Below, piece by piece: positions 13,209-31,266 of a DNA stretch of 45,145 bases (within the stretch, counting starts at the first letter, position 1; every line of letters begins with the position of its first letter). The position numbers and the translations under genes are program-made. The stretch is taken from contig JAFURF010000056.1 in the NCBI GenBank assembly GCA_017471965.1, positions 1-45,145 of the forward strand, written 5' to 3'. A model generated the notes under the pieces. It saw nothing but the letters and a program-made list of their open reading frames with translations, was not told the DNA's origin and did not search any database. Source of the stretch: Bacteroidales bacterium (GTDB taxonomy: Bacteria > Bacteroidota > Bacteroidia > Bacteroidales > UBA932).

Positions 13209-14557
13209 ATGTTATATTTCTTCAGTTTGGCGTACAGGGTAGGCCTGCTTATTTCCAGTGATCGCGCGACCATCGACAGATTGCCTCCGAACCTTGCCAT
13301 TGCCGCTCTTATCGCCTTTTCTTCGGTCTCTTCCAGAGTTTCATTTCCGCTCATAGGAGTTTCCTGTGAACTTGTACGGCCTTGCGGAAGTTCTATGTCA
13401 GATGCCGTAAGTGTCTCTCCTTCAGACATGATCACAGCCTTTTCGATGCAGTTCTGCAGTTCGCGGATATTGCCGGACCATATATGGCTTTTAAGTAGGT
13501 CTGCGGCGTCCGGGGTCAGTCCCTTCACTGTCCTTCTGTACCTGTCGGCATATTTTGCGATGAACATTTCTGCCAGCGGAGTGATTTCGTCCATCCTCTC
13601 GCGCAGGGAGGGGAGGTGCAGGTGCATCGTGTTGATGCGGTAATAGAGGTCCTCGCGGAATTCCCCGTCGCGGACCATCTTTTCGAGGTCCTTGTTGGTG
13701 GCGCAGATAAGTCGTATGTCGATCGGAATTGCCTTGGTATCGCCTACGCGAGTGATGGTCCTGTTCTGAAGGGCACGCAGAAGTTTTGCCTGCAGATGCA
13801 GAGGGATGTTTCCTATTTCATCGAGGAAGAGGGTGCCTCCGTCCGCTTGTTCGAATTTTCCGACATGGTCGGCATGGGCGTCTGTGAATGCTCCCTTGAC
13901 ATGACCGAAAAGTTCGCTCTCGAAAAGAGTTTCAGTCAACGCTCCTGCGTCAACGCATACCATGGGCTTCATGGTTCTCAGGGACATCCTGTGGATCTCT
14001 CCCGCAAGCACGTCCTTTCCGGTTCCGTTCTCTCCGGTGATGAGTACGGTGGCGTCGGTCGTGGAAATCTTCTCGACGGTCCTGCGGATCGCCGTCATGG
14101 CCTGCCCCTTTCCCCAGAGCATCGGTATGGTCGAGGCCGGAACGGCATCTGCTTCACGAGCCTCCTTGCTGCGGTTTTCATATGCCGCCTTAAGCGTCTC
14201 CACAAGTTTGTCGTTGTCCCATGGCTTGACGATGAAGTCGAAGGCTCCGCGCTTCATTCCCTCCACGGCCAACTGTATGTCCGCGTATGCCGTGAAGAGC
14301 ACGACCTCGATGTCAGGACGGACCCTCTTTATCTCACTGAGCCAATAGAGACCCTCGTTTCCTGTGTTTATGTCGGTGTGGAAATTCATGTCCAGAAGGA
14401 CTACGTCAGGACGGAACTCAGCAATCCTGCTCACCAGTTCCTTCGGTGACGGAATCAGTTCCACCTGAGCGAAATGCATCGGCAGAAGCAGTTTGAGAGC
14501 CGCTCTGATCCCGCTGTTGTCGTCCACAACCAGTATCTTTCCTTTGCTTTTAGCCAT
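13205..14557 (-). CDS. Sigma-54-dependent response regulator (NtrC family), 450 aa
   Basis: The order is receiver domain (about 5-120, acidic pocket Asp12/Asp13, phospho-acceptor Asp56, Lys in FIVKPWD), AAA+ domain and Fis-type HTH. The AAA+ domain (about 145-375) has Walker A GENGTGKD, Walker [11 protein letters not shown] and arginine-finger region [11 protein letters not shown]. The HTH is at the C-terminus ([21 protein letters not shown]). The sigma-54 contact loop reads GAFTDA instead of the textbook GAFTGA. It is encoded 33 bp after a MacB-like permease in the same unit. The three palindromic upstream sites at 17029, 25899 and 31233, each with a -24-like box, are the natural candidates for its targets. 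Confidence 0.92.
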
Positions 14558-16921: not shown

Positions 16922-16967
16922 GCCAGTCGTGATTTATGTCATTTTGTCCCTTTGATTCACTACTGCT

Positions 16968-17056
16968 GTGCCAAAGTAGGTAATATGTTGATTTGTAGGG
17001 ATATGCGCTAATTTAACTGATGTGCAAATGTAAAGATATTTTACAAAACTGTAAAG
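16968..17056 (-). promoter_or_regulatory. Control region A: TTTGGCAC box plus upstream palindrome, before the permease-regulator-kinase unit
   Basis: On the minus strand, TTTGGCAC (16968-16975) matches the -24 part of sigma-54 promoters; the -12 part (TAGT at the expected spacing) is poor. Starting 53 bp further upstream are the 17-bp palindrome TGTAAAATATCTTTACA (17029-17045), a 4-bp gap and a half-site (TGTAAAG on the plus strand, 17050-17056). The same layout occurs at 25837-25926 and 31171-31260. Confidence 0.65.
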
Positions 17057-17093
17057 CAAAGATTTATTTTAATATGACTAAAATAAATCTTTG
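17057..17093. repeat. 15-bp perfect inverted repeat (CAAAGATTTATTTTA arms)
   Basis: CAAAGATTTATTTTA (17057-17071) and its exact reverse complement (17079-17093) are separated by 7 bases. It abuts the upstream half-site of control region A and lies about 120 bp before the BECR-like gene. Neither side has a T run long enough for a convincing terminator. It could be an operator for the gene at 17211 or a remnant of an insertion. Confidence 0.75.
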
Positions 17094-17210
17094 TTCCTGA
17101 ATGACAGACAAAGAAAAGTGCAATGAAGATAAAAAACAGAAAAATCTTCCGGATTTGGCCACATAATTTTCTTCAGACCGGATACATTCGGGAACTTCAT
17201 ATGAAAAAAC

Positions 17211-17690
17211 ATGAAGTATTATCGTCTTGCCGTCGATGAGAACGGCTCCCCGTTCGTGCTGAACAGCAAAGGTTCCATCGACTTCGGGTACATCACCGAT
17301 GAAATGAACCTCCCGCCTGCACCTATCCGGATTGCAGAAGGTGCAACTGGTCCTAAAGGATATGGTCTGAAGCATATCATCGAGGGACATTCAAAAGAAA
17401 TCATAGGCTCCGGCTATGAAACAGTGAATGATTTCATTGAAGATGTCGCAGGTACTTTTACCGAAATCAAGGAGGGGAGGGCCGGGTCATTTCTTTTGGA
17501 AAAAGGAGATATGTATCACAATACTCTTTTTATCGCATTGTCGAAAGAAGGAGACTACTGGAAGGTGATAAGCGGAGGAGTATTTCGAACCAGATATTCA
17601 AAAAACAAAAGGATTATCCATTCTGCCTCCGAAGTGCTGAAATCTTCTCCTGCCGAAGATGATCTTTCGCCATTTGAAGATATAGGATAA
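17211..17690 (+). CDS. Lone BECR-fold (barnase/EndoU/colicin E5-like) nuclease-domain protein, 159 aa
   Basis: The sequence fits a domain often found at the C-terminus of phage head-morphogenesis and polymorphic-toxin proteins (PBECR families). It has a start like GSIDFGYITDE, then APIRIAEG, the hallmark GYGLKHIIEGH (His in HIIEGH), the helix GYETVNDFIEDVA, and strands ending DYWKVISGGVFRTRY. These families are predicted RNases; activity here is inferred. The gene covers only this domain and has an in-frame stop three codons before its ATG, so it is not a visible fragment of a longer reading frame. It is on the opposite strand to every neighbour, divergent from one permease and convergent with another, and no immunity or antitoxin gene follows. 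Transfer from a mobile element is possible. Confidence 0.65.
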   Translation: MKYYRLAVDENGSPFVLNSKGSIDFGYITDEMNLPPAPIRIAEGATGPKGYGLKHIIEGHSKEIIGSGYETVNDFIEDVAGTFTEIKEGRAGSFLLEKGDMYHNTLFIALSKEGDYWKVISGGVFRTRYSKNKRIIHSASEVLKSSPAEDDLSPFEDIG

Positions 17691-17787
17691 CAGGACTCTT
17701 CAAATGCTACCGGTAGATCTGGACTATCCCTTTAATTCTGCAAATATATCAAAATTCATTCAAAACCAATGAATTTACAGAATATTT

Positions 17788-20169
17788 CTACTCCTTCTTC
17801 AACGCCTCTGCAGGATTGGTGCGGGCGGCGCGGAGGGTCTGCCAGAGGACGGAGGACAGGGAAATCATCAGGGCGATGAGAGCGGCGGCGACAAATGGCC
17901 AGGCGGTCAGGTCTATCCTGTACGTGAACTGCTCGAGGTAGCGCACACTGAGTGACCATGCCACAGGGATTCCTACGACGCATGCCGCCACGGTGATCAG
18001 CATATATTCGAGCATGCTGCGTCCGGTCTCGCTCGCCACGGTGCCACCGTAGACCTTTCTTACCGCAATGTCCTTTTCCCTTTCGACTGCAAAATGAGTG
18101 CTCATCGCAATGAGCCCGAGAGCCGAAATTAGGATCGCCAGAAGAGTGAATATCTCGATCATCTTCATCGTGTTACGGATCTCCGTGTAATCGTCGGCAA
18201 TGAGGTCTTCAATATATTTTCCGTCCCATTGCGGAATGACCACTCCATAATAATCCAGCGAGAACCTGTCATACAGTTTCAATATCTCGGACAGGGCCTC
18301 CTTTCTGTCTATGCCTTCGGTCTCTATCAGAAGGTCGCTGTTGTATATACCCATGTCCGCCTCAGACATGACGAAGACTGCCGTATTCGATTTCTCGATG
18401 CTTCCGGAAATGGCGTTCTCGCTTATCACGTTGCCGATTACACCGCCGAGATGGTCGACCTTTGCCTGATTGAGACCTCCGTTCCATTTGTTCATCAGTT
18501 CCTCAGCCTTTTCCCTTGATCCTAGTAAACGGTACAGGTTGTCAGATATCCAGAACGAATGCGAAAGGTCGTCACTGAATTGTTCCTTTATCTCGAAATT
18601 CCACATTCTGAATGCTTCAGGGTCGCAGAACAGCAGGTCCACCTGAACTGTCTCTCCTGTCTCATCGACACGAAATCCACTGTTGAAACTTTTCCTTGTC
18701 GGATATCCTCGTGCGAATGAAACGTTCTTCACGAAAGGCAGTTTCCTGATTTCGTCCCTCAGCGGCATCGCCTCATGTGAATATGCCACGCATGTATTGA
18801 TCATGATCTTATCTGTAATGTCCGCCCCGACCGGCATCTCCATCATATGCTTCATCTGCATCTCCATCACCACGCTGATGGCGACCAGTACTACAGCGAG
18901 TACGCCCTGAAGGCCGATGAATATCTTGCTGAAGACCATTTTCCTTCTTCTGCGCCACGTGCCGTTGACTATGTCTATAGGCATGATGGAAGATGTTGCA
19001 AAGGCCGGAATGATGCCGCAGATGCATCCTGCCGCCATGATGACGGATGTACATATCAGTACGCCTCTCCATGTCACCGTCATCCTGACGCCGCCTTCAA
19101 GGAATGTCCCCGCCACAGGGGCAACCGCCCAAGCCAGAGCAAGAGCGATGATGAAGCATACGGCAGTGAAAAGGACGGATTCACGGATATAGGAGAAGAT
19201 GATGCGGTGTTTTTCCGAGCCGACAAGCATCCTTGTCGCCATTTCCTTTGCCCTTTTGCCGGTCAGTGCAAGGTTGAGGTTGATGTAATTGATGACAGAC
19301 GACAGCAGAAGCAGCAGTACCACTACAGAAAGTATGTTGACCACTGATTTACTGCAGGTCTTGAACGAGAGGTCACCCTCATTCTCTTCTGTAAAGTATA
19401 CCTCGTCAATCCTCTTGACATTCACACGTTCCTTATATTGAGGGTGGTTAGGGAAATGCGGGGTCAGTGCATCCTTGATGATGGATATGGCCTTCACGGT
19501 GACTTCTTCCTTTGCCAGATCATCAGGCACTTCAAAGAAGATCATGGATGAAGCATTGCTGAATGGATATGTCCATCCGCTTTCGTTCAGTCCGCACTCT
19601 GCGTGGCAGAAGAAGTCTACCTGCCTCCATATCCGGTCATCACTGTCTCTGACCACTCCCTTCACGGTGAAGGTTTCTGCGCTGTTCATATCCGTTTCCA
19701 CCACAGATACGCGCATGCCCATGGCGTCAGCCGGAGCAACACCCAGTTTCGCCGCCATGCGCTCGCTGATGAATATGTCTTCCTTGCCCTGCATGGCTGA
19801 TGCCGATCCTTGGATGAATTCATATCCGAACATCTCGAAGAAATCATATCTGACGGCAAGACAGTTCAGGAGGTGATTCATGTCATCGCCGGACACCACG
19901 ATCTCATCGAATGAAACAGCATATGCAATCTTTTCAATTTCCGGCATCTGCTCCTTCAGCACGTCAGTCAGGCCATACGCTACCGTCGACCCTCCATACA
20001 TTCCCGGAACATATGTATTCCTGTAATCCGATACCTTTCGGGAAATGTTCTTGTGTTCCAGCACATACGATCCTATCAGCAGCACGAACGCCAGCGCCAC
20101 ACTCAATCCCACCGCCTCTATTGCCGTGTACATCTTGTTTCTGCTCAGAAATCTCAGGTAACTCTTCAT
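17788..20169 (-). CDS. MacB/FtsX-type ABC transporter permease, 793 aa
   Basis: The start MKSYLRFLSRNKMYTAIEAV leads into TM1 (about 15-38). A large periplasmic domain follows, then three TMs in the middle (about 290-310, 335-355, 375-395), a fourth (about 422-440), a second periplasmic domain and three C-terminal TMs. REKDIAVRKVYGG is the typical cytoplasmic motif and the protein ends NPAEALKKE. It is the last gene of the ATPase-permease-permease-permease unit, 27 bp after the 20197-22545 gene. The first 90 or so bases of these two genes are about nine-tenths identical, though the rest has diverged, pointing to an old duplication with a conserved or gene-converted front. Confidence 0.88.
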   Translation of the reverse strand: MKSYLRFLSRNKMYTAIEAVGLSVALAFVLLIGSYVLEHKNISRKVSDYRNTYVPGMYGGSTVAYGLTDVLKEQMPEIEKIAYAVSFDEIVVSGDDMNHLLNCLAVRYDFFEMFGYEFIQGSASAMQGKEDIFISERMAAKLGVAPADAMGMRVSVVETDMNSAETFTVKGVVRDSDDRIWRQVDFFCHAECGLNESGWTYPFSNASSMIFFEVPDDLAKEEVTVKAISIIKDALTPHFPNHPQYKERVNVKRIDEVYFTEENEGDLSFKTCSKSVVNILSVVVLLLLLSSVINYINLNLALTGKRAKEMATRMLVGSEKHRIIFSYIRESVLFTAVCFIIALALAWAVAPVAGTFLEGGVRMTVTWRGVLICTSVIMAAGCICGIIPAFATSSIMPIDIVNGTWRRRRKMVFSKIFIGLQGVLAVVLVAISVVMEMQMKHMMEMPVGADITDKIMINTCVAYSHEAMPLRDEIRKLPFVKNVSFARGYPTRKSFNSGFRVDETGETVQVDLLFCDPEAFRMWNFEIKEQFSDDLSHSFWISDNLYRLLGSREKAEELMNKWNGGLNQAKVDHLGGVIGNVISENAISGSIEKSNTAVFVMSEADMGIYNSDLLIETEGIDRKEALSEILKLYDRFSLDYYGVVIPQWDGKYIEDLIADDYTEIRNTMKMIEIFTLLAILISALGLIAMSTHFAVEREKDIAVRKVYGGTVASETGRSMLEYMLITVAACVVGIPVAWSLSVRYLEQFTYRIDLTAWPFVAAALIALMISLSSVLWQTLRAARTNPAEALKKE

Positions 20170-20196
20170 GGTTTCAATATTTTGTGTTCTTCAATG

Positions 20197-22545
20197 TTAT
20201 TCCTTCTTCAGAGCCTCGGAAGGATTCGTGCGCATCAGACGGAAGGCCTGGAAACTGATGGAGGCAATGACTACGGTCACGACGATGATGACTGAAGCGA
20301 CATATATCCATGCGGTATTTTCGATCCTGACAGGGTACTTGGAGAGCCATCTCTCGATATACAGATATGCCAGTCCTATCGCTATGACAGAGCCTGCCAG
20401 CACCGGAATCAGAAATCCTTTGACCATCTGCCAGAAGACCTCTGCATTCGAACTGCCGAAGACTTTGCGGACAGCGGTATCGTGAGTGCTCATCTGAGCG
20501 GAATAAGAACTCAGAGCGATGATCGCCATTATCGTTGTCAGGATGCTCAACAGAGCGAATACGCCTATCATGGCGAACACCTTCTTCTCTTCCTTGAATT
20601 TTTCTTCGACAAGGGAATTCAATGTGTCTATCTGAGGCATGTGTTCGGCATCCTTGCGCTCGCTGTAGAAATCGCGTATCTTTTTCAGAGCATCTTTTTC
20701 ATTCCCTTTGACCTTCACAAGCAGGCCGTAAAGATATGAGTCGGTGTCAGTCTGTATTGTGTAGTACTGATATGTGTTCGGGTCGTATTCCTTGATCGAC
20801 ATCGTCCTGAAATCGGATACGACTCCGTCTACATTCACTGAAACATCCAGTCTGATCATGTTGTTCTCATCGATATGCGGTTTCAACTGTTCATATGAAC
20901 TCTTGCAGATCATGCTCTTGCGTACAGATCCGCTACGCATTGCAGTTGAAGTTCCGAAATCCTCAAGAATCTCGATTCCAAGTATTTCAAGTGCCTCGGC
21001 ATTTCCAGACATGCCCATCATGGTGTGGTCCTTACTCAGGTACATCATCAGTCCGAACTGGGTCGGAGGGGATGCCAGGTCTCCGATCCTGTCCACATAA
21101 CTCTCGGCGAGAAGTTCGTCCTTGAACCTGAGGTCGTCTCTTGTAACGAAGTCCACATATATGATGTTGTCGGTTTCATATCCCATCGGGGTGTCGATCA
21201 TGTGCCTGGTCTGGGCATATATCGCCAGAGTCACCGCAATCGCAGCAATGCTGAGCAGGCCTTCCAGTCCGATGAATATCTTTCCCAATGTGACCTTGTC
21301 ACTCTTTCTTGCTTCTCCCTTTATGACCTCGATAGGTTTGTAACGTGACATCACCAAGGCAGGCACAAGACCTGCGGCCAGGGAGAGAACTATGACGGCC
21401 GATATCGTGAACACCCACATTGCAGGCGTATTGAACAAGTCGATGTTGCTGCCGAGAAGTTCTCCTACGATGTCTTTCAGGGCAAATGCAAGCGCCAGGG
21501 CAACGGCAAATGACGCAGTCACGAGGGTTGCCGCCTCTGATATGCATTTGACATAGATTCCTGTCTTTGTAGTGCCGAGGAGTTGTCTTGTCGCCATCTC
21601 CTTTACTCTGAATCGGGAGAATGCCATGGTCAGGGAAATGTAGTTCAGACCGGCGAAAACGAGAAGTATAAGACATGCAAACATGAATGTATGGTACAGG
21701 TCTACGTCTGTCATGTTGTCGAAATGAGTCTTTGAAATTCCGCCAGTGTGGTGGATCTCATCGAATGGAATGAGGTCGATCCTGGTATATCGCGAAAATT
21801 TCTTGTCAAGGTCGCTGTCGTTGTCCTCAAGAAGGAACTTTCCGATCTTTTCTATGTCTGCCCCTTCTGACAGTCTTACATAATGGACGGAACTCGGGCG
21901 TCCCAGTCTCATCCTTATGTGTTCCGGATATCCGAGGTTGTCCAGATTGTTGATGAAATCAAGATTCAGGAACATTCCACGGTCCTGAAGAACCGTCTTG
22001 CCCATATCCTTGTAGACTCCGGTCACCGTCAGTTCCACTTCCTTGAGCCTGGGTTCGTATATGATGAGCATCTGTCCGACAGGATCCTGACCCGGAAACA
22101 TCATGTTCGCAACCTCTTCTGAGATGACGGCGGCGTTCTGCTGATCCATCACTGTCTTCGGGTCTCCGTACTTGAGGTCGATTCCGAAGAAATCGAAATA
22201 GTTGCCACGAATCAGGACAGGGGTGATGTCCATCTTCTGCTCTCCGGAAGCCGTCTGGATATATTGGGTCTTACCGTCGTATGCGGAATGAATGATGACA
22301 TTGCACCAGTCTTCTATCTCCGGTACCTTAGGGAATACCACTTCAGGGTCCGGTCTATAGAAACTTGCATCATCAGGCAGTACCAGGTAAATGCCCTCAG
22401 CGTTCCTTATCTTGCTGTCGCAACTCAGGTCGTCGAATACGACATTTCCGAGAAGCAGCACGAATGCCAGCGCCACGCTCAATCCCACCACCTCTATGGC
22501 GGTGTATAACTTGTTTCTGCTCAGGAATCTCAGGTAACTCTTCAT
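20197..22545 (-). CDS. MacB/FtsX-type ABC transporter permease, 782 aa
   Basis: This is a paralogue of the 17788-20169 gene with the same front (MKSYLRFLSRNKLYTAIEVV) and the same layout of TM1, periplasmic domain, four central TMs, periplasmic domain and three TMs. The motif is THDTAVRKVFGSS and the protein ends NPSEALKKE. The Thr/His replacing the usual acidic/basic pair before AVRK is a small deviation. It lies 36 bp after the 22582-24996 gene in a four-gene unit headed by the ATPase. Substrate cannot be read from sequence. Confidence 0.88.
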   Translation of the reverse strand: MKSYLRFLSRNKLYTAIEVVGLSVALAFVLLLGNVVFDDLSCDSKIRNAEGIYLVLPDDASFYRPDPEVVFPKVPEIEDWCNVIIHSAYDGKTQYIQTASGEQKMDITPVLIRGNYFDFFGIDLKYGDPKTVMDQQNAAVISEEVANMMFPGQDPVGQMLIIYEPRLKEVELTVTGVYKDMGKTVLQDRGMFLNLDFINNLDNLGYPEHIRMRLGRPSSVHYVRLSEGADIEKIGKFLLEDNDSDLDKKFSRYTRIDLIPFDEIHHTGGISKTHFDNMTDVDLYHTFMFACLILLVFAGLNYISLTMAFSRFRVKEMATRQLLGTTKTGIYVKCISEAATLVTASFAVALALAFALKDIVGELLGSNIDLFNTPAMWVFTISAVIVLSLAAGLVPALVMSRYKPIEVIKGEARKSDKVTLGKIFIGLEGLLSIAAIAVTLAIYAQTRHMIDTPMGYETDNIIYVDFVTRDDLRFKDELLAESYVDRIGDLASPPTQFGLMMYLSKDHTMMGMSGNAEALEILGIEILEDFGTSTAMRSGSVRKSMICKSSYEQLKPHIDENNMIRLDVSVNVDGVVSDFRTMSIKEYDPNTYQYYTIQTDTDSYLYGLLVKVKGNEKDALKKIRDFYSERKDAEHMPQIDTLNSLVEEKFKEEKKVFAMIGVFALLSILTTIMAIIALSSYSAQMSTHDTAVRKVFGSSNAEVFWQMVKGFLIPVLAGSVIAIGLAYLYIERWLSKYPVRIENTAWIYVASVIIVVTVVIASISFQAFRLMRTNPSEALKKE

Positions 22546-22581
22546 ATCTTTATTTTGCGTGTTTTGTAAGTTCTTGTGTTA

Positions 22582-24996
22582 CTATTCCGTCTTCAGCGCT
22601 TCGGCAGGGTCGGCGGTGGCAGCCTTCCAACTTCTGATGATCACCACGCCGATGGTCACAGCCATTACGGCAACAAGTGCCAGGGCGAAGACCCACCAGT
22701 ACATAGGGCACCTATGCGCGAAGGTGGCGAGGTAACGGTCAACGATGACCCATCCGATCGGAGCGGCAACGGCGAAGCAAACGAGCACGATCTTCACGAA
22801 TCTGCTGCAGAACATTGCCAGTATCTCACCTACGGTTGCGCCGTTTACTCTGCGCAGAGCGATCTCCCTGCGGCGGTACTGGGTCTCAAACATCACCAGA
22901 CCGAACACTCCCATAAGAGAGATGATGATGGCAATAGCAGTGAAAATGCTGATCAGTTCCGACAGAGCCTTCTCTTTCCTGTAAATCGAATTGATGTTCT
23001 CTTCAAAGAAATATATGTTCCATTCTTCAGGAGAGATGCTTCCGCTCCATTCGCTGAGGACTGTTCCTATATGTTTCATTACGTGCTTATAGTCAGCCCC
23101 CGCTGCAACACGTATGAAAGCAGTGCCTGGATGCCACCACGGGTCGTTTCCGAACACAAACAGAGCGAATGGTTTCACATCTTCCTTCAATGTCGTGAAA
23201 CTGAAGTCCTCGCAGAAACCTGCAATCTCGGTTTCGTCCTTATGGCCGCTCACCTTGTCTTCGAGCGTCAGTCCGAACTCTCTGCGTGCCGTTTCATTAA
23301 AGATGAATACTCCGTTTTCGGAGTTGTGGTCCGATTTGCTGAAGGTCCTGCCTTCAGTTATATCGATCTTCATGAATTCCAGGAAATCGTATGCCACGGG
23401 GTAGCATTGGAAGGTGATGCTCTTGCCTTTGAAGTCACGGCCCCAGCCCATTCTCTCAGAAGCGAGCAGGTTTCCTGCTGCCCATGTGACATCCAGAATC
23501 TGAGGGTCTGTCTTGAGCCTGTCCTCGACAGCGTCTGCGTTGGCTCCTATATATTCTCCCACATGGACATATAGCAACTGTTCCTTGTCAAATCCCATAT
23601 CGAAATTGACCATGTAACTGCGTTGGAGACTGATGAATGCCGAACTGATGATGAGCACAGTAGATATTATGAACTGAAGTCCGATAAGGAGATATCTAAG
23701 CCTCTGACCTGTCTTAGTGCCGCTGAATGAACCCTTGAGAACCAAGGCAGGCTCGAATGAGGTGATGTAGAACGCGGGGTACAGGCTCGACACTATTGAA
23801 ATGGCAATCGCGGTCATCACGGTCAGTATCGTCATGCCGACATTGGCACTGAAAGCGCATGACGTGCTGATGAGATGGGTCAACTGACTCATATTGAACA
23901 TCATGACGAATACAGATGCCAGTACAAGTGCTAAGGCGATAAGTGCCACACTTTCTGTAACCGTGCTGATGATAAGTTCGCGACGTGTGCATCCGAGCAC
24001 CTTCTTTGTGTTCACGGCTCTGATACGTTCAGGAATCTGTGCGAAGAAGAAGTTGATGTAGTTGATGAAGGCTATGCCGACGATGAGGATCGCCACAATC
24101 AGGAGTATGATAGTCGTAGTACGGTTTCCGTGCTCCAGAATCATGTTTATTTCGTCAGTGAAATAAAGGTCTTCGATCGGAAAGAGATGAGGCCTGCTCC
24201 GTTCAACCAATTCCTTTATAAGGTCATCTACCTCTTCCTGAGTCATTCCCACCTCTTCAAGTGAAGTGACGTCCTTGAGAATGAGGTCACTATAATATTC
24301 TGCAGTCACTGAGAACATCTGTTCTTCTATAGTCTCAATCGCTTCAGGGTCATAAACCTTTATGAAATAATTGTAGCCCCATTCCGATACGTTGTCTATA
24401 CCTTTCTCTCCGATATTCCTCAGAATCTCAAGGTCTCCGAAATGAGAGTTCTCAGACATATCCTTGAATATCACTGCTACAGAACATGGCTGGGTCCCCC
24501 AGTTGAGCCTCATTCCGACCTCAAGTCCGAATTTCTTTGCAACCCTCTCGCTAACAGCCAAAGCCATATAGTCGATGACATCATCAAAAGAGCCTGCAAC
24601 TGCTTCAAAACCGAAATCCTCAAGATGGTTTCCACTGAAATCGATCACCTTTGTCTTGATGACCTGTCGTTCGCCGTTCCGCTCCATATGGAAACTCTGT
24701 TCCTGGACGTTTGTAAGGCGTATCATTGAATAGCATTCTATGTCAGGAGAGGCCTGCAAGGCTGCTTCGGCCATGGGTCTATTGTAATATATGCTCTTCT
24801 TTCCCGGATTTTGCCAGTCGTTCGCACCAAGAATATAGACTCTTTCAGAGTCTTTGATGTCCTTATTGAAGTTAAGGTCGTGATTGACCTGAACGAGAAT
24901 GATATAGAATGCCGCAAAGGCTACTGCCATACCCAGTACATTGAGTATGCCTGACATTGCCGATCCGCCTTTTCTGAATATGTTGAATGGTGCCAT
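22582..24996 (-). CDS. MacB/FtsX-type ABC transporter permease, 804 aa
   Basis: The front, MAPFNIFRKGGSAMSGILNVLGMAVAF, differs from its two downstream neighbours and is closer in style to the permease at 14591, so the locus holds at least two subtypes. It has the usual eight-TM layout with two periplasmic domains, the motif YRRREIALRRVNGATVGEI and the ending DPAEALKTE. It follows the ATPase by 103 bp. That gap contains a GGCAC box but no palindrome, so I treat it as part of the ATPase unit. Confidence 0.88.
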   Translation of the reverse strand: MAPFNIFRKGGSAMSGILNVLGMAVAFAAFYIILVQVNHDLNFNKDIKDSERVYILGANDWQNPGKKSIYYNRPMAEAALQASPDIECYSMIRLTNVQEQSFHMERNGERQVIKTKVIDFSGNHLEDFGFEAVAGSFDDVIDYMALAVSERVAKKFGLEVGMRLNWGTQPCSVAVIFKDMSENSHFGDLEILRNIGEKGIDNVSEWGYNYFIKVYDPEAIETIEEQMFSVTAEYYSDLILKDVTSLEEVGMTQEEVDDLIKELVERSRPHLFPIEDLYFTDEINMILEHGNRTTTIILLIVAILIVGIAFINYINFFFAQIPERIRAVNTKKVLGCTRRELIISTVTESVALIALALVLASVFVMMFNMSQLTHLISTSCAFSANVGMTILTVMTAIAISIVSSLYPAFYITSFEPALVLKGSFSGTKTGQRLRYLLIGLQFIISTVLIISSAFISLQRSYMVNFDMGFDKEQLLYVHVGEYIGANADAVEDRLKTDPQILDVTWAAGNLLASERMGWGRDFKGKSITFQCYPVAYDFLEFMKIDITEGRTFSKSDHNSENGVFIFNETARREFGLTLEDKVSGHKDETEIAGFCEDFSFTTLKEDVKPFALFVFGNDPWWHPGTAFIRVAAGADYKHVMKHIGTVLSEWSGSISPEEWNIYFFEENINSIYRKEKALSELISIFTAIAIIISLMGVFGLVMFETQYRRREIALRRVNGATVGEILAMFCSRFVKIVLVCFAVAAPIGWVIVDRYLATFAHRCPMYWWVFALALVAVMAVTIGVVIIRSWKAATADPAEALKTE

Positions 24997-25099
24997 TTGT
25001 TGTCGTTATAGAGTTGTCCGTGTCTATCTGATAAGTCTTGTAAATAAAGGCAGTATCTCACGACAGTGCCGTTATCTTTTATTTATGTTTAACAATCTA

Positions 25100-25780
25100 C
25101 TAAAGTTCGTTCTTTACGTCTGATACGATCTGTCCGTCGAAGAGGTTCACGACCCTCTGAGCCACGGACGCATCCTTCTGGGAGTGAGTCACCATCACGA
25201 TAGTCGTGCCTTCCTTGTTGAGTTCAGTCAGGAGATCCATCACCTCCTTGCCGTTCTTAGAGTCGAGGTTACCGGTAGGCTCGTCGGCGAGGATCAGTTT
25301 AGGGTTCGATACCACTGCTCGTGCGATTGCCACACGCTGCTGCTGACCGCCGGAAAGTTGCTGAGGGAAGTGCTGTGCGCGATGGCTGATGTTCATCCTC
25401 TTGAGCATCTCTGTCACGCGCTGCTTGCGCTCTGATGCGCTGATGTTGAGATAGCGGAGGGGGAGTTCCACGTTCTCGAACACGTTGAGTTCGTCGATGA
25501 GGTTGAAACTCTGGAACACGAAGCCGATGTTGCCCTTGCGGAACTTGGTGCGGTCCTTCTCCTTGAGTCTGGCCACTTCCTGTCCGAGAAGCATATAACT
25601 TCCTTCTGTAGGGTTGTCAAGAAGTCCGAGGATGTTCAGGAGGGTAGACTTGCCGCATCCTGAAGGGCCCATGATGGCTACGAATTCGCCGTCCTTGATT
25701 TCAAATGAAACCTTGTTGAGTGCTGTTGTCTCGATTTCCTCTGTACGGAAAACCTTGCTGAGGTCTGTTACTTTGATCAT
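25100..25780 (-). CDS. ABC transporter ATPase (LolD/MacB-type), 226 aa
   Basis: This is a complete nucleotide-binding domain: Walker [10 protein letters not shown] (38-46), Q-loop near [18 protein letters not shown], signature [14 protein letters not shown], Walker [13 protein letters not shown] and switch His in VMVTHSQ. The length and the DEPTGNLD motif are typical of the LolD/MacB/FtsE group that works with FtsX-like permeases. It is the only ATPase in the locus, so it probably serves all five permeases. It heads its unit, with control region B upstream. Confidence 0.95.
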
Positions 25781-25836
25781 GATATTGTTATTTAAATTGT
25801 TTGTTTCGGATTATGCTTCTTTATATAGTTACAACC

Positions 25837-25926
25837 GTGCCAAATGTGTCAAGTTGTTGATATGTAATAATTTAGTTTTGTGATTTTCGGCGTTGCGGTG
25901 TAAAATATCTTTACATTGTTGTAAAG
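25837..25926 (-). promoter_or_regulatory. Control region B: TTTGGCAC box plus upstream palindrome, before the ATPase unit
   Basis: TTTGGCAC (25837-25844, minus strand) lies 54 bp from the palindrome TGTAAAATATCTTTACA (plus strand, 25899-25915), which is the exact reverse complement of the region A palindrome as read on the plus strand. After the same 4-bp gap comes the half-site TGTAAAG (25920-25926). The -12 position reads TAACT, a partial match only. The half-site ends 4 bp before the stop codon of the upstream permease gene. Confidence 0.65.
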
Positions 25927-25929
25927 TGC

Positions 25930-28275
25930 CTATTCGTTCTTAAGCGATTCGACAGGATTGCTGCGGGAGATGCGCAGGCTGTTCAGGACGACGCAGCAGG
26001 TCACAAGCAGTAGTATCACTATGTCAGGGATTACGAAGTACCATGCTGAAAGCGTGATCCTTTCCGAGAAATTCTTGAGCCAGATTGTAGCGGCAAAATA
26101 CGCACCGGCATTTCCGATGATAATGGCAGGTATGCTCAGACGCATTATTTCCATGGCATAGATGCGGAGGATTTCATTCGATGTAGCACCGTTGATCTTG
26201 CGCACAGCCATCTCCTTGCTTCTGCGCTGCGACTCGTCACGGATGTATCCTATCAGGCCGAAGAGGGCGATGATGATGGATACCAGACATCCTATGATGA
26301 CCGTATTCCTCATCCTCCTTTCGCTGGAATAGGCATCCCGCATAGAGTCCTTGTAGGATTTCACGACCACATCCTTGTTCTCGATTCTAGCCTGGATCAC
26401 TTCTTCCACCTTAGCCATCATCTCTGTAGTTACCTCCGTCACCTTGATGAGCATGAGCGGCATATAGTCCTTGCCGACCTCTCCATGGAACCTGATGCTC
26501 GCACGTGTGTCCTGGTTGGTCAGAGTGTTGATCCTGTAGTCCTTATAGACCCCGCTGATCGTGAATGCCCCGTGATCATAGTCGTGTTCGGTGATGTGTA
26601 CCTGCTTGCCGACTGCTCCGTCGCTCCAGTCCTGATATTCCATCATCTTCTTTACGAAACTTTCGCTTACTGCCATTTCCGATTCCGATTGCGGATATCT
26701 TCCTTCGATAAAAGGAATCCCGAGCATGTCAAAGAGTCCTTCAGAACCCCAATACTGGTCCGCAATGTTGAAAAGTTCCTGATAACCGCTATCCATCATG
26801 AAGACATTGTTGCCTGAAGAATAATCGAGAGGGAGGCTATACGACATCTGTACGTCTGTTACCTCGGGCATAGCCTTCAGATCGTCAATGATACCCTGAT
26901 GCACACCATTATCAGTACCTCGAAGTCCTGTATAAATAAGATCCTCGTATTCATATCCCGGCTTGTCATTCACAGCCTTGTCGTACTGTGCGGAAATCAC
27001 ACTCATCAATGTGAGCAGAAGAGCACATATTCCGGTCTGGATGAAAAGAAGCGCAAGTTTCCAGACACGTTTGCTTTCGCGATAATTCCTGATGGCTGCC
27101 CCTGCAGGAATCTTTGAATAGAGATATCCGGGTACAAATGCTGCAATAAAGAATACTGCCAGTATGACACCGACAGAAGTCATATATGTCCCTCTCACCA
27201 GAAGGGCATCGACAGGAACTCCGACGATATCCTCGATGACTGTCTGAAGAGAAAGCACGATAACCGCAGCCACGAACAATGCCGCCGCTACATCAACTGC
27301 CGCTTCCTTGAACAAGATGCCGTAGATGTTTCCCCCGGCTGCACCATAGCACTTGCGGACTCCCATCTCCTTTGATCTCTTCACCAGAGCGGATACCGAC
27401 ATCAAAATATAGTTAAGGAGCGAAATCATGATGAGAAGTATGGCTACTATGGTCATAATGACCATCATATTCCTGATGTTGTCAGAAGAAGTATATTCTT
27501 CAGTTAAAGGAGATAGAATGAAATGAATGTCAATTCCAGATTCTTCTGCCATCTTTATGGCTTCAGGAGAATAATTCTTTTCCTGCATAAGTCTGATTGC
27601 CGGAGCAAGCATTTCCGGATCAGTACCATCTTCAAGTCTTACATATCCCTTGTAACGGTCGTTGCCGATCCAGTTTTCCGTAGATCCTTTACCGTATGAT
27701 TCCATCGACAGAAGTACATCATACTTTACCGAACTATGATAAGGGAAGTCTTTGAATACTCCTTCTATAGTCATGGTGAACTGTGGCAGTTCTTCGTTTG
27801 CAATGACCTTTCCGATTGCTTCAGAGACACCTCCCATCTTTTGTGCAAAACTTTCGGAAACCATCACCGCTGCCATCTTTCCAAGTGTCTGTTTAGGATT
27901 GCCCGCAAGTATTTCCGTGTCAAAGACATCAAAGAAGCAGGTGTCAGCGATTATCACTGAGCCATTTATGATATTCTTGTCTTCGTCCAGGAACCTGTCA
28001 CTGCTCCAGATGAAAGTAGTTCGTGTCGCCGTCCTGACTCCAGGAACATATTGCTTGAATCCTGGTGCGACCGCTCCTGGAATCTGTCCATAATCATGTT
28101 CTTCGCCCTGTTGTGTGTATAATGTGCGGATCTTGTAAATCTGCCCATAATCCGTGTAGCATTTGTCATGGCTCATCTCATGACATACCTTGGCGATGAG
28201 CAGCAGCCCGACTGCCAGTCCTGTGCCCAGAGATAAGGCCTTTATTATAGTGTCTTTGATTCTTGTATGATTCAT
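25930..28275 (-). CDS. MacB/FtsX-type ABC transporter permease, 781 aa
   Basis: This is the most divergent of the five permeases. It starts MNHTRIKDTIIKALSLGTGLAVG with TM1 at about 12-30 and keeps the overall layout with two periplasmic domains and the motif RRSKEMAVRKINGATSNEI; it ends NPVESLKNE. It is the third gene of the tolC-type, hlyD-type, permease unit and is separated from the adaptor gene by 105 bp. Together with the adaptor and the outer-membrane channel it could form a MacAB-TolC-like exporter once joined by the ATPase of the next unit. Confidence 0.88.
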   Translation of the reverse strand: MNHTRIKDTIIKALSLGTGLAVGLLLIAKVCHEMSHDKCYTDYGQIYKIRTLYTQQGEEHDYGQIPGAVAPGFKQYVPGVRTATRTTFIWSSDRFLDEDKNIINGSVIIADTCFFDVFDTEILAGNPKQTLGKMAAVMVSESFAQKMGGVSEAIGKVIANEELPQFTMTIEGVFKDFPYHSSVKYDVLLSMESYGKGSTENWIGNDRYKGYVRLEDGTDPEMLAPAIRLMQEKNYSPEAIKMAEESGIDIHFILSPLTEEYTSSDNIRNMMVIMTIVAILLIMISLLNYILMSVSALVKRSKEMGVRKCYGAAGGNIYGILFKEAAVDVAAALFVAAVIVLSLQTVIEDIVGVPVDALLVRGTYMTSVGVILAVFFIAAFVPGYLYSKIPAGAAIRNYRESKRVWKLALLFIQTGICALLLTLMSVISAQYDKAVNDKPGYEYEDLIYTGLRGTDNGVHQGIIDDLKAMPEVTDVQMSYSLPLDYSSGNNVFMMDSGYQELFNIADQYWGSEGLFDMLGIPFIEGRYPQSESEMAVSESFVKKMMEYQDWSDGAVGKQVHITEHDYDHGAFTISGVYKDYRINTLTNQDTRASIRFHGEVGKDYMPLMLIKVTEVTTEMMAKVEEVIQARIENKDVVVKSYKDSMRDAYSSERRMRNTVIIGCLVSIIIALFGLIGYIRDESQRRSKEMAVRKINGATSNEILRIYAMEIMRLSIPAIIIGNAGAYFAATIWLKNFSERITLSAWYFVIPDIVILLLVTCCVVLNSLRISRSNPVESLKNE

Positions 28276-28380
28276 AACTCTTTAATTCATAGTGTTTCAG
28301 TTATCTTGTCCTGCCATCCTTTTCTTGCAGGTCAAACCACCTTATTGCTTGATATTCAGCATTTTATATATCACGCTATG

Positions 28381-29637
28381 CTAGAATACCAGCACCTCGT
28401 TGTCACCGAAACTCTCATATCCTGATACAATGACCTTTTCGCCAGGGGAGAGGCCTTCGAGGACTTCATAGAACTGCGGATTCTGACGGCCGATGCGGAT
28501 GTCGCGACGTACGGCTTTTCCTCCTTCCGGCACTACCACATATATCCATTTGCCTCCGGTCTTCTGGTAGAATGTGCCTCGAGGGATAAGGACTGCGCTT
28601 TCCGGCTGGCCGAGCTGGAGATTCAGGTAGTAGGTCTGGCCGGTGCGGATGTTGGTTGGCTGCGCCCCGCTGAACTTGAAGTCCGCCTGGAACTTGCCTC
28701 CTCGTACCTCCGGATATACCTTGCGGATGACTGCATCGAAAGTCTCGTTCTGACGCTCGAATGTCGCTGTAAGACCTGCAGAGACCCTGTCAATATAATG
28801 CTCGTCGATCTGTGCCTCGATCTTGTAACTGCCTAGTTCGTTGATCTGGCCTATTTTGGTGCCGCTTCCGATGGACTGGCCCAGGACCACCTCGAGAAGT
28901 CCGAGTTCTCCATCGATAGGTGCCTTGACCGAAAGATTCTCCTTTCTTCGGCGGATCATCTGCATGTTGACCTTCATGTTTTCAAGGCTTTCCTTCATCT
29001 GTTTGATCTGCACGTTCCTGTACATGCTGTCCTGCTCGGCACGAGCCAGCGTCACCTCCAGTTTCTTGCAGAAGAGCACATAGTCCTCTTCCGAACGGAG
29101 AAGTTCCTCCTTGCCGATGAGTCCGTCCTTGAACAGCCTTTTCTGTGATTCCAGAGTGCGTCCCTTGCGCTTCACTTCTGTTTCAAGTTCAAGAATGTTC
29201 AGGCTCAACTGCATCTTCTCCTGCTCCATCTGGATCATGGTGTTGCGCAGGGCATTTTCCTTCTCTGCAAGATTGGCCTCAGAGTTGAGTATCTCAAGGT
29301 CCAGGTCATCATTGCTCAGACGTACGATGACGTCTCCGGCCTTTACAGCAGTTCCTTCTTCAATAACTATATCCTCTACGATTCCGGCTTCACGCGGGCT
29401 TACCTGGATGGTCGTCATCGGCTGGACCTGTCCGCTTATGCGGATGTAGTCGTTGAATTCTCCCGACCTTACTTCGCTGACCGACAGGGTGTCACCGTTT
29501 ATGCGCAGGGTGCTGGAGTCGTCGCGCAATATGAGCCAGGCGATGAATATCACCACAAAACCTCCGAACCAATAGGGCAGTGCCTTCCTGCTGAATACCA
29601 GCGCAAGCCCTTTCTTCTTTTCCAATACTTTATCCAT
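28381..29637 (-). CDS. HlyD/MacA-type periplasmic adaptor protein, 418 aa
   Basis: A short cytoplasmic N-terminus and one TM (about 20-40) are followed by a first half-lipoyl motif (GQVQPMTTIQVSPREAGIVED, EEGTAVKAGDVIVRL). A long coiled coil covers about residues 110-235. The second half-lipoyl stretch (LSVKAPIDGELGLLEVVLGQSI) and beta-barrel/membrane-proximal domains (NIRTGQTYYLNLQL to GEKVIVSGYE) complete it. This is the membrane-fusion family that bridges inner-membrane transporters to TolC. It lies 18 bp after the TolC-like gene, as expected for a tripartite system. Confidence 0.92.
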   Translation of the reverse strand: MDKVLEKKKGLALVFSRKALPYWFGGFVVIFIAWLILRDDSSTLRINGDTLSVSEVRSGEFNDYIRISGQVQPMTTIQVSPREAGIVEDIVIEEGTAVKAGDVIVRLSNDDLDLEILNSEANLAEKENALRNTMIQMEQEKMQLSLNILELETEVKRKGRTLESQKRLFKDGLIGKEELLRSEEDYVLFCKKLEVTLARAEQDSMYRNVQIKQMKESLENMKVNMQMIRRRKENLSVKAPIDGELGLLEVVLGQSIGSGTKIGQINELGSYKIEAQIDEHYIDRVSAGLTATFERQNETFDAVIRKVYPEVRGGKFQADFKFSGAQPTNIRTGQTYYLNLQLGQPESAVLIPRGTFYQKTGGKWIYVVVPEGGKAVRRDIRIGRQNPQFYEVLEGLSPGEKVIVSGYESFGDNEVLVF

Positions 29638-29655
29638 TGTCTTTATCTTTTATTC

Positions 29656-31131
29656 TTATTGAATCATTTCCTTTACATCTATTTCAAGGTCACAGCCCTT
29701 GATGAAGTCATACAGGGTAAATTGTCGAAGCCTGTAATAGAATATCCAGAAATTGCTGATGTCGCTTATATATTGCCTGAGGGCACTGTCGTTTTCGGTC
29801 TGGGCCATGTTCAGGTCTGTCACGGTAGCATTTCCTTCTCTGAATCTGTGCATCGTGAGTTCATAGCGCTCAGATGCGATTTCCTTTGCCTTTTCTGACA
29901 CCAGGCATTGCTGACGCTGATTGTTGAACTGACTCACGGCGGTATACATCTGACGTCGGAAGTCATTTTCGGACTGCTGCACCTGGGCCCTGACCACTTC
30001 CTGCGCAGCCTTTGCCTTCTGCACCTTGCCTTTGCCTAGTCCCCAGTCAAAGATCGGTATGCTGAAAGTTATTCCCACTATTTCCTGATCCAGAAGGTTC
30101 TTGTATGCCTGTGGAAATTCAGGACCGGTCTGTGACATGCCGAAACGGGCATTAAGTGCAAACGAGTAGCCGCGCGACGCCTTGGCCTGAGCGACTGCAG
30201 ATTCCGCATTCAGAAGACTGAGTTCGTTTGAAAGCATGAAACTTGAATTATCAAGAGATTTCTGCATGACAAGGTCATAGTCCATCTGAATTGCCGGCAG
30301 GTGTTCCTCGATCTGCGGAATGATTTCAAATGACTCGTCATAGCCGAGCAGTGAATTCAGGACCATCTGCGCTTCGCGGACCTGTACCGCAGTTTCATTG
30401 ATGGAGATGCTGTCATTCAGCATCCTGAGTTCGAGTTGGAGGTAGTCTGCCTTGGTGACATTGCCCAACTGGAGCCTTTCCTTGGCGATTCTGAGCATTT
30501 TGCCTGAGTTGTCGAAATTGCTTTTGCTGATCTCATTGTTCATTCTTGCAAGAAGCAGATTGTGGTAGGCATAGACTGCATCTATCGTAATGCCTTCCAT
30601 GGTCTCAAGGTACTGTCTTTTTCCTTTTTCATACTCCTTTGGCTCAATCTTCTTGTCCCATTTGAACTGATTGTATGTGAAGAGAGGCTGATAATATGAT
30701 ATTGTCACAGGACGTGAATACCATGTAAGACTCTTGTTGTTTCCGAACTGGTCGATACGCGAAAGGTCGGTGGAGACGGAGAGGGTACCTCCGGTGAATG
30801 TGACATTCTGATTGACCTGCAGGCCGACTCCATTCTGCAGATTGTTTGAACTTACATATTTCAGGGAACCGTCCTCAGGGTTCTGCAGAAGAGTGAGGGA
30901 CCTGTCGAAATTCATAAGTTCTCCATACATATGGAAAGAGGGGAGTCTGCTCGCCTTATAAGACCGGTATGCCCAATATGTAGATATGAAGGCCTGCCTT
31001 GCTTCAAGGGCTTCTACGGACTGATGCCTTGCAGTATGAATGACGTCTGGCAGACTCATTTCATCCTGGCCGGCAAGTCCCGCATACATAGTGATCAGCA
31101 GTGTGAAAGTTAATGTTATTCTTTTGGTCAT
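29656..31131 (-). CDS. TolC-family outer-membrane efflux protein, 491 aa
   Basis: A signal peptide (MTKRITLTFTLLITMYAGLAG, cleavage near AGQ) is followed by two OEP halves rich in long helices. Examples are NFDNSGKMLRIAKERLQLGNVTKADYLQ in the first half and AKEIASERYELTMHRFREGNATVTDLNMAQ in the second, the repeated helix-turn motif of TolC proteins. The length fits the family. It heads the unit tolC-type, hlyD-type, permease, which starts after control region C, and probably supplies the outer-membrane channel. Confidence 0.93.
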   Translation of the reverse strand: MTKRITLTFTLLITMYAGLAGQDEMSLPDVIHTARHQSVEALEARQAFISTYWAYRSYKASRLPSFHMYGELMNFDRSLTLLQNPEDGSLKYVSSNNLQNGVGLQVNQNVTFTGGTLSVSTDLSRIDQFGNNKSLTWYSRPVTISYYQPLFTYNQFKWDKKIEPKEYEKGKRQYLETMEGITIDAVYAYHNLLLARMNNEISKSNFDNSGKMLRIAKERLQLGNVTKADYLQLELRMLNDSISINETAVQVREAQMVLNSLLGYDESFEIIPQIEEHLPAIQMDYDLVMQKSLDNSSFMLSNELSLLNAESAVAQAKASRGYSFALNARFGMSQTGPEFPQAYKNLLDQEIVGITFSIPIFDWGLGKGKVQKAKAAQEVVRAQVQQSENDFRRQMYTAVSQFNNQRQQCLVSEKAKEIASERYELTMHRFREGNATVTDLNMAQTENDSALRQYISDISNFWIFYYRLRQFTLYDFIKGCDLEIDVKEMIQ

Positions 31132-31170
31132 GATGTTTTGGTATGTTTGCCATACCTTGTATCACTACCT

Positions 31171-31260
31171 GTGCCAAAATAAATAAAGCATTGACAATCA
31201 CTGGGTTGTCAATGCTTTTGAGGCTTGTACTCTGTAAAGAAACTTTACAGATGTGTAAAG
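31171..31260 (-). promoter_or_regulatory. Control region C: TTTGGCAC box plus upstream palindrome, before the TolC-HlyD-permease unit
   Basis: TTTGGCAC (31171-31178, minus strand) lies 54 bp from the perfect palindrome TGTAAAG-AAA-CTTTACA (31233-31249), followed after 4 bp by TGTAAAG (31254-31260). The half-site ends 6 bp from the trkA stop codon. The -12 position reads GTGAT. Confidence 0.68.
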
Positions 31261-31266
31261 TCGGAT

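What the first reader, a model, noticed from the sequence alone, without database searches (positions are those of the whole stretch)
16968..31260. Three identical control modules define a local NtrC-type/sigma-54-like regulon
Three transcription units start with the same arrangement: a 17-bp palindrome TGTAAAG-N3-CTTTACA, a 4-bp gap, a half-site TGTAAAG, and a TTTGGCAC box 53, 54 and 54 bp from the palindrome (17029/16968, 25899/25837, 31233/31171). Fixed spacing in three otherwise unrelated intergenic regions is hard to explain by chance. The locus itself encodes an NtrC-family activator and kinase, and TTTGGCAC is a good -24 element. The -12 element is degenerate in all three (TAGT, TAACT, GTGAT), so either the -12 rule differs in this lineage or another polymerase form is used. 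A bound activator only about 80-100 bp from the start would be close for a sigma-54 enhancer.
Basis: partly seen in the sequence, partly recalled or inferred. Interest (0 to 1): 0.8.

Follow-up and report, generated by a model that had tools for sequence, protein, structure and literature searches.

The report
Sigma-54 switch for envelope ABC exporters
Three promoters in a gut Bacteroidales bacterium carry the same on-switch, apparently read by a regulator encoded beside them and used to turn on a cluster of ABC export pumps; the parts are of a known type, and the regulator, its DNA code and its targets are matched here by sequence comparison alone.

Summary
Three minus-strand promoters share CTTTACA-N4-TGTAAAG-N3-CTTTACA, 53-54 bp, then TTTGGCAC; the palindrome is exact only in the third. 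In the held genome (64% complete) the composite occurs at these three places and nowhere else with 2 or fewer mismatches. The genome encodes sigma-54; the window encodes an NtrC-type activator and kinase.

In the window plus 80 loci with close relatives of the activator, 41 of 401 non-redundant TGGCAC boxes have two or more half-sites 40-140 bp upstream, against 2 of 401 downstream. Those 41 have a -12 element (TG at -14/-13: 29 of 41, against 25 of 342 boxes without half-sites), and half-sites keep helical phase to the -24 box. First genes downstream are TolC-like or FtsX-type in 44 of 56 cases.

So this is a local sigma-54 regulon: a new member of a known kind. A different -12 rule for the lineage is not needed, and the enhancer position, about -83 to -110, is ordinary. 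Unexplained: orientation-variable half-sites, TT at -36/-35, and a second TGGCAY box 22-23 bp downstream in some relatives.

The parts
17029..17056 (-). Module 1 enhancer: three half-sites CTTTACA / TGTAAAA / CTTTACA (palindrome 17029-17045 with 1 mismatch, extra half-site 17050-17056); about -83 to -110 from the predicted start
16958..16975 (-). Module 1 -24/-12 promoter TTTGGCAC-N6-AGTG (weak -12); predicted start near 16947 (inferred)
   Evidence: -12 region score equalled or beaten by 16 of 342 background boxes, combined with -36..-27 by 0 of 342
25899..25926 (-). Module 2 enhancer: CTTTACA / TGTAAAG / TTTTACA (1 mismatch)
25827..25844 (-). Module 2 -24/-12 promoter TTTGGCAC-N6-AACT (weak -12); predicted start near 25816 (inferred)
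   Evidence: -12 region score equalled or beaten by 13 of 342 background boxes, combined by 0 of 342
31233..31260 (-). Module 3 enhancer: CTTTACA / TGTAAAG / CTTTACA (exact)
31161..31178 (-). Module 3 -24/-12 promoter TTTGGCAC-N6-TGAT; predicted start near 31150 (inferred)
   Evidence: -12 region score equalled or beaten by 1 of 342 background boxes, combined by 0 of 342
31185..31218 (-). Terminator-like hairpin (13 pairs, T-rich tail) between the module 3 enhancer and its promoter; probably ends the TrkA-like gene upstream (inferred)
   Evidence: 15 terminator-like sites in 16900-31400 against 10.9 in shuffles, so a consensus match only
29656..31131 (-). TolC-like outer-membrane efflux protein (PF02321), first gene of the module 3 operon
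28381..29637 (-). HlyD/MacA-like periplasmic adaptor (best NCBIfam score DarC, below its cut-off; over the cut-off of the general RND_mfp model)
25930..28275 (-). FtsX-type permease
25100..25780 (-). ABC ATPase (best NCBIfam score DarD, below its cut-off), first gene of the module 2 operon
22582..24996 (-). FtsX/MacB-core permease
20197..22545 (-). FtsX/MacB-core permease
17788..20169 (-). FtsX/MacB-core permease
14591..16921 (-). FtsX/MacB-core permease, first gene of the module 1 operon
13205..14557 (-). NtrC-type response regulator (receiver, sigma-54 AAA+ with GAFTDA loop, Fis-type HTH); proposed reader of the TGTAAAG half-sites; second gene of the module 1 operon, so probably autoactivated (inferred)
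12000..13208 (-). Histidine kinase (HATPase_c and PAS_8 over cut-off; HisKA below cut-off), presumed partner; overlaps the regulator gene by 4 bp

Best explanation
The three modules are sigma-54 promoters, each with an enhancer for the NtrC-type regulator 13205-14557. When its kinase (12000-13208) senses an unknown signal, perhaps envelope or antimicrobial stress, the phosphorylated regulator binds the TGTAAAG half-sites on one face of the helix about 83-110 bp upstream of the start, oligomerises, contacts sigma-54 polymerase at the TTTGGCAC/-12 promoter and uses ATP to open it. This turns on a tripartite ABC efflux system and a set of FtsX/MacB-type permeases, and through module 1 its own operon (positive feedback). 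Shown by sequence: the modules, the RpoN gene, the domain make-up, recurrence of site, promoter, phasing and target type in relatives, and linkage to the regulator gene. Inferred: binding, phosphorylation, start sites, operon limits, signal, direction of regulation and exported substrate.
For: RpoN of 470 aa with ARRTIAKYRDQ near its end (that this is the RpoN box is recalled). Regulator with Response_reg, Sigma54_activat, AAA_lid_14 and HTH_8 over cut-off. In window plus 80 loci with relatives of the regulator (65-98% identical) the exact half-site occurs 382 times and clusters with itself, most often at 10-11 and 21-22 bp; 8 control heptamers of the same base make-up occur 29-276 times and give 0-3 pairs within 40 bp each. 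42 of 55 half-site clusters have a TTGGCAY/TGGCAC box within 130 bp, against 200 of 3000 random positions. 41 of 401 non-redundant TGGCAC boxes have two or more exact half-sites 40-140 bp upstream, 2 of 401 downstream. In these 41 against 342 boxes without any: TG at -14/-13, 29 against 25; T at -11, 29 against 102. Half-site distances are phased at about 10.5-10.75 bp (R 0.63; 0 of 2000 shifted nulls reach it). A matrix from 38 of these promoters, window and L018 left out, scores each window promoter above all 342 background boxes when -36..-27 and -20..-10 are combined. Linkage: composite in 13 of 119 family genomes, reversed pattern in 0; 12 of its 20 places lie on the same contig as, and within 17 kb of, a regulator match, or 9 of 17 without the window's own three. 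12 of the 13 clusters without a box start within 155 bp upstream of the regulator gene itself, and 10 of 24 loci printed show the exact palindrome pattern there. The HTH end [12 protein letters not shown] is nearly unchanged, as is the half-site. First genes downstream.
Against: No binding, footprint or start-site data. Modules 1 and 2 have weak -12 elements. Only 40 of the 81 sequences hold a cluster of two or more exact half-sites; many of the rest are short contigs, but I did not test why. 13 of 55 clusters have no TGGCAC-like box within 130 bp; looser boxes such as GGGCAC or GGTAC were seen there in some only by eye. 8 of 20 composite places are not on a regulator contig; 4 of the 13 genomes with the composite gave no regulator match at E 1e-120. 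39 of the 48 genomes with a regulator match have no copy of the composite within 2 mismatches, so this layout is not universal. TTTGGCAC alone is not enriched in the genome. The 80 loci include several from one assembly, so some relatives are paralogues.
Confidence: 0.86

Rival explanations
1. The palindromes are sites of another regulator (for example a CRP/FNR-like or other winged-helix protein) that merely shares the neighbourhood, while sigma-54 acts with a different activator.
For: Palindromic TGT-N11-ACA is a shape used by several protein families (recalled). 8 of 20 composite places are not on a regulator contig. The genome has a second protein with a strong sigma-54 activator domain, L120, with a GAFTSA loop.
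Against: Helical phase to the -24 box and presence upstream but not downstream; linkage to this regulator gene and clusters next to its own start in relatives; of 30 canonical sigma-54-like boxes read from family genomes (30 of 49 matches) only 1 had a half-site within 200 bp upstream.
Confidence: 0.09
2. TTTGGCAC is not a sigma-54 box; the operons start from ordinary Bacteroidota promoters (-33 TTTG, -7 TAnnTTTG) and the palindrome is a repressor or activator site for those.
For: -12 elements of modules 1 and 2 are weak; TTTG is also the published -33 box (PMC7366714, passages).
Against: Boxes with half-sites show a -12 element in relatives; none of the three window promoters shows TAnnTTTG just downstream, by eye; RpoN present; canonical sigma-54-like boxes exceed the reversed pattern 49 to 6 in the family.
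Confidence: 0.04
3. Recent duplication: the three modules are copies spread with paralogous permease genes and carry no shared function.
For: The permeases belong to the same families, so promoter copies could have travelled with them.
Against: The 53-54 bp between half-sites and box differ between modules, the three first genes are a TolC-like channel, an ATPase and a permease, and the pattern recurs in loci whose regulator is only 65-70% identical.
Confidence: 0.01

Closest known systems
NtrC-family two-component activators with sigma-54 promoters (best NCBIfam scores: TIGR02915 PEP-CTERM regulator, AtoC, ZraR, NtrC)
   Same: Domain order, AAA+ and HTH_8 domains, partner kinase, half-site enhancer upstream of a -24/-12 promoter
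   Different: Below the cut-off of each of the 25 models shown of 75 (432.1 against 502.6 bits for TIGR02915); GAFTDA instead of GAFTGA; half-site TGTAAAG; targets are FtsX/MacB-type exporters
Sigma-54 regulome of Desulfovibrio vulgaris (PMC4641369: sections 6 and 13 read in full, other passages)
   Same: Small co-localised regulons (one to four operons for the majority), the biggest fraction of promoters within 100 nt of a site, TGT-N9/11/12-ACA motif groups (this one is TGT-N11-ACA), a site with three half-sites tested by gel shift, GAFTDA listed among loop variants that would maintain activation
   Different: Other phylum; no FtsX/TolC exporter regulon of this make-up in the parts read
Predicted sigma-54 control of FtsX/COG0577 ABC permeases in Bacteroidia (PMC12316311, passages)
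   Same: The same class of target genes in the same class of bacteria, predicted from -24/-12 boxes
   Different: In the passages seen, no activator or enhancer site is named for them; here both are paired with the targets
Darobactin exporter DarBCD (NCBIfam models)
   Same: ATPase and adaptor score highest on DarD and DarC; the permeases score on DarB but higher on the ADOP permease model
   Different: All below the curated cut-offs; no evidence that this locus exports darobactin

Membership tests
Sigma-54-dependent promoter | TGGCAC at -24 | tested here: met
   exact in all three modules
Sigma-54-dependent promoter | -12 element (G at -13, Y at -12) at fixed spacing | tested here: inconclusive
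   module 3 good, modules 2 and 1 weak: 1, 13 and 16 of 342 background boxes do as well; present in relatives
Sigma-54-dependent promoter | RpoN encoded in the genome | tested here: met
   PF04552 E 9.7e-54, 470 aa
Sigma-54-dependent promoter | Transcription lost without rpoN; start about 12 bp after the -12 element | not testable with these tools
   needs RNA work
NtrC-type (group I) enhancer-binding protein | Receiver + sigma-54 AAA+ + Fis-type HTH | tested here: met
   over cut-off
NtrC-type (group I) enhancer-binding protein | GAFTGA loop or a working variant | tested here: met
   variant G[AS]FTDA in 80 of 80 relatives; GAFTDA is listed as a variant that would maintain activation (PMC4641369, passage)
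NtrC-type (group I) enhancer-binding protein | Binds the proposed enhancer | not testable with these tools
   only linkage, phasing and conservation
MacB/FtsX-type tripartite ABC exporter | Permease, ATPase, adaptor and TolC-type channel encoded together | tested here: met
Darobactin exporter DarBCD | Scores over the equivalog cut-offs | tested here: not met
   DarD 293.2 of 375, DarC 204.7 of 450, DarB at most 74.9 of 700 bits

The most novel reading that the evidence does not exclude
The enhancer is read as a helical ladder and not as a string of dimer palindromes: TGTAAAG half-sites may point either way so long as each lies on the same face of the helix and in fixed phase to the -24 box, so that single HTH subunits seed an AAA+ ring close to the promoter. 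With the GAFTDA loop, the relaxed -12 and the TT at -36/-35, these would form a distinct short-range sub-class of sigma-54 promoter.
Probability: 0.2. Interest if true: 0.55.

Novelty: new member of a known kind. Interest (0 to 1): 0.33.

Why it matters
Sigma-54 control in gut Bacteroidales seems little charted in the papers I could search. This pairs one regulator with its half-site code and with a clear set of targets (envelope ABC exporters) across dozens of relatives, so that a regulon can be predicted from sequence in uncultured species. It also gives a natural set of aligned promoters for asking how strictly an enhancer placed this close must lie on the same side of the helix.

Tried and rejected
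Genome-wide TTTGGCAC alone: no enrichment, 23 against 39 reversed. TTGGCACNNNNNNTGCT with 1 mismatch in the own genome: 22 against 35 reversed, so not usable for finding further promoters.

Is TT at -36/-35 a general sigma-54 feature? In 27 non-redundant canonical boxes from a phylum sample, 4 of 27; perhaps half of those boxes are chance, as 29 matches stood against 14 reversed. In 27 non-redundant canonical boxes from the family (30 loci read of 49 matches), 9 of 27. In this regulon 33 of 41, background 21 of 342. So it is strongest in this regulon, and its cause is open. A family search that required the TT gave 73 against 43 reversed.

Second TGGCAY box 22-23 bp after the first: 7 of 41 promoters against 0 of 342 at those offsets (4 of 342 at other offsets from 25 to 37). 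Where I checked by eye (L045, L053 and the group of L074) it lacks a -12, so I do not call it a second promoter.

Period from the nearest half-site alone: not resolved, R is 0.54-0.64 for all periods tried from 9 to 12 bp; the period rests on whole arrays.

An altered -12 rule for the lineage: rejected. An enhancer too close to the start: rejected (PMC4641369, section 13).

Paper searches. None listed a TGTAAAG enhancer for a Bacteroidales NtrC-type protein (one search gave one Paracoccus paper, seen as a listing only; one search gave none). Searching PMC12596196 for sigma-54 words found none. Most subscription papers are not held, so this is no proof that it is not in print.
Full report
What was claimed and what is there. 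All three are present at the stated coordinates, on the minus strand, in front of the genes that start at 16921, 25780 and 31131. In promoter direction each reads CTTTACA-N4-TGTAAAG-N3-CTTTACA, then 53, 54 or 54 bp, then TTTGGCAC. The palindrome is exact in module 3 and has one mismatch in modules 1 and 2. The palindrome with up to 2 mismatches is expected 0.06 times per window by shuffling. The 19-base composite is exact at these three places; the five other matches in the held genome have 3 mismatches, and the reversed pattern gives 3. The held genome is 2.32 Mb in 85 contigs and about 64% complete, so further copies could be missing.

The genes. Module 3 heads a TolC-like channel, a HlyD-type adaptor and an FtsX-type permease. 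Module 2 heads an ABC ATPase and three FtsX/MacB-core permeases. Module 1 heads another such permease, then an NtrC-type response regulator and a histidine kinase. Operon membership is inferred from gene order and strand. The ATPase and adaptor score highest on darobactin-exporter models and the permeases on the ADOP permease model, all below those cut-offs, so the substrate is unknown. The genome encodes RpoN, 470 aa. Four matches to the sigma-54 activator domain were found: this regulator, one other strong one (L120, GAFTSA loop), and two weak ones of 34 and 22 bits.

Comparison with relatives. A scan of genome contigs gave 80 loci with relatives of the regulator, 65-98% identical, nearly all uncultured Bacteroidales assemblies, many from ruminant guts. 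In window plus 80 loci (1.25 Mb) the exact half-site occurs 382 times and clusters with itself: facing pairs at 10 bp (27), back-to-back pairs at 11 bp (9), same-direction pairs at 21 or 22 bp (33 in all), with smaller peaks elsewhere such as 14 and 33 bp. Eight control heptamers of the same base make-up gave 0 to 3 close pairs each. Clusters of two or more half-sites number 55, in 40 of the 81 sequences. 42 of the 55 have a TTGGCAY/TGGCAC box within 130 bp; for random positions it is 200 of 3000. Of the 13 without a box, 12 start within 155 bp upstream of the regulator gene (positions), where looser boxes such as GGGCAC-N5-TTGTT can be seen by eye in some (24 of the 80 loci printed).

Promoter test. 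After removing near-duplicates 401 of 461 TGGCAC boxes remained; 41 have two or more exact half-sites 40-140 bp upstream, 2 have them downstream, and 342 have none within 20-200 bp upstream (18 fall between and were left out). Among the 41 against the 342: TG at -14/-13, 29 against 25; pyrimidine at -12, 32 against 157; T at -11, 29 against 102; TT at -36/-35, 33 against 21. A matrix built from 38 of these, with the window and its near-identical relative L018 left out, ranks each window promoter above 342 of 342 background boxes on positions -36..-27 and -20..-10 combined. On the -12 region alone, 1, 13 and 16 of 342 background boxes do as well as modules 3, 2 and 1. So modules 1 and 2 have weak -12 elements of a real promoter type.

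Phasing. Half-sites lie mostly at 53-55, 61-64, 71-73, 83-84, 93-95 and 104-105 bp before the TGGCAC, a period of about 10.5 to 10.75 bp (R 0.63; null mean 0.15, maximum 0.37 in 2000 random shifts of each array; the observed maximum was taken on a finer grid of periods than the null, but R is 0.63 at 10.5 on either). Some half-sites are off phase, for example six at 97. The nearest half-sites alone do not resolve the period. Orientation varies between promoters while the phase is kept. Distances are not independent within one array; the null shifts whole arrays to allow for this.

Linkage. In 119 genomes of the family the composite (2 or fewer mismatches) is in 13 genomes at 20 places, overlapping matches on the two strands counted once; the reversed pattern is in none. 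The regulator (E at most 1e-120) is in 48 of the 119. 12 of the 20 places are on the regulator's contig within 17 kb: G000 three, G004 two, G011 two, G031 two, and one each in G034, G049 and G086. The other eight are on other contigs or in genomes without a regulator match; some of these assemblies are fragmented. 9 of the 13 genomes with the composite have a regulator match, against 39 of the other 106. So the exact three-half-site layout is a feature of some relatives, while others use other arrays of the same half-site.

Targets in relatives. For 56 box-with-half-sites cases, duplicates included, the best match of the first open frame is TolC-like 19, FtsX-type 20, ATPase 2, adaptor 1, and 14 have no match to the window's proteins. 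Five of those 14 were scanned and all five are outer-membrane efflux proteins, which makes 44 of 56 TolC-like or FtsX-type; four had no open frame of 100 aa. Some TolC-like matches are weak (about 20% identity over 300 residues). A few of the 56 are second boxes of the same promoter or probably chance.

Mechanism. The sites and the promoter are shown by sequence; that the regulator binds and activates is inferred from established knowledge of NtrC-type proteins. The array spans about -83 to -110 from the inferred start. [quoted passage not shown] The same paper reports TGT-N9/11/12-ACA motif groups, a site with three half-sites tested by gel shift, mostly regulons of one to four operons, often beside their regulator, and GAFTDA among the loop variants that should work. 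The regulator here has G[AS]FTDA in 80 of 80 relatives and a nearly fixed HTH end. Sigma-54 control of FtsX/COG0577 permeases in Bacteroidia has been predicted (PMC12316311, passages). In Flavobacterium psychrophilum a -24/-12 motif was found at mapped start sites and tested by mutation at one operon (PMC9723704, passages).

Verdict. A local, probably self-activating sigma-54 regulon for envelope ABC exporters: a new member of a known kind, with the regulator, half-site code and targets now matched. Open points are the orientation-variable, helix-phased arrays, the TT at -36/-35, and the second box 22-23 bp downstream in 7 of 41 promoters.

Noticed in passing
window 31185-31218, minus strand: A terminator-like hairpin lies between the module 3 enhancer and its promoter, so the enhancer probably sits in the 3' end of the upstream TrkA-like transcript.
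   Followed up: partly
window 17057-17093: A perfect 15-bp inverted repeat with a 7-base loop (CAAAGATTTATTTTA / TAAAATAAATCTTTG) directly abuts the outer half-site of module 1 (read by eye).
   Followed up: no
L045, L053, L055, L060, L062, L074, L084, L090, L095, L096: A second TGGCAY box 22-23 bp after the first; in the non-redundant TGGCAC set 7 of 41 against 0 of 342.
   Followed up: partly
downstream of the promoters in window and L018-L097: TGTAAA between about -6 and +29 of the predicted start in 9 of 41 regulon promoters against 3 of 342 other boxes, which may hint at a downstream operator.
   Followed up: no
41 promoters in window and L018-L097: TT at -36/-35 (often TTA) in 33 of 41 against 21 of 342; 9 of 27 in canonical sigma-54-like boxes of the family.
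   Followed up: partly
L072, L076, L080, L089: A half-site palindrome ends about 5-15 bp before the regulator's own start codon, a place that would suit autorepression.
   Followed up: partly
window 17211-17690, plus strand: A 159-aa open frame between the exporter operons with no Pfam match at E 0.001.
   Followed up: no
window 37237-37854, minus strand: A 205-aa open frame matching the Zeta_toxin and AAA_33 models.
   Followed up: no
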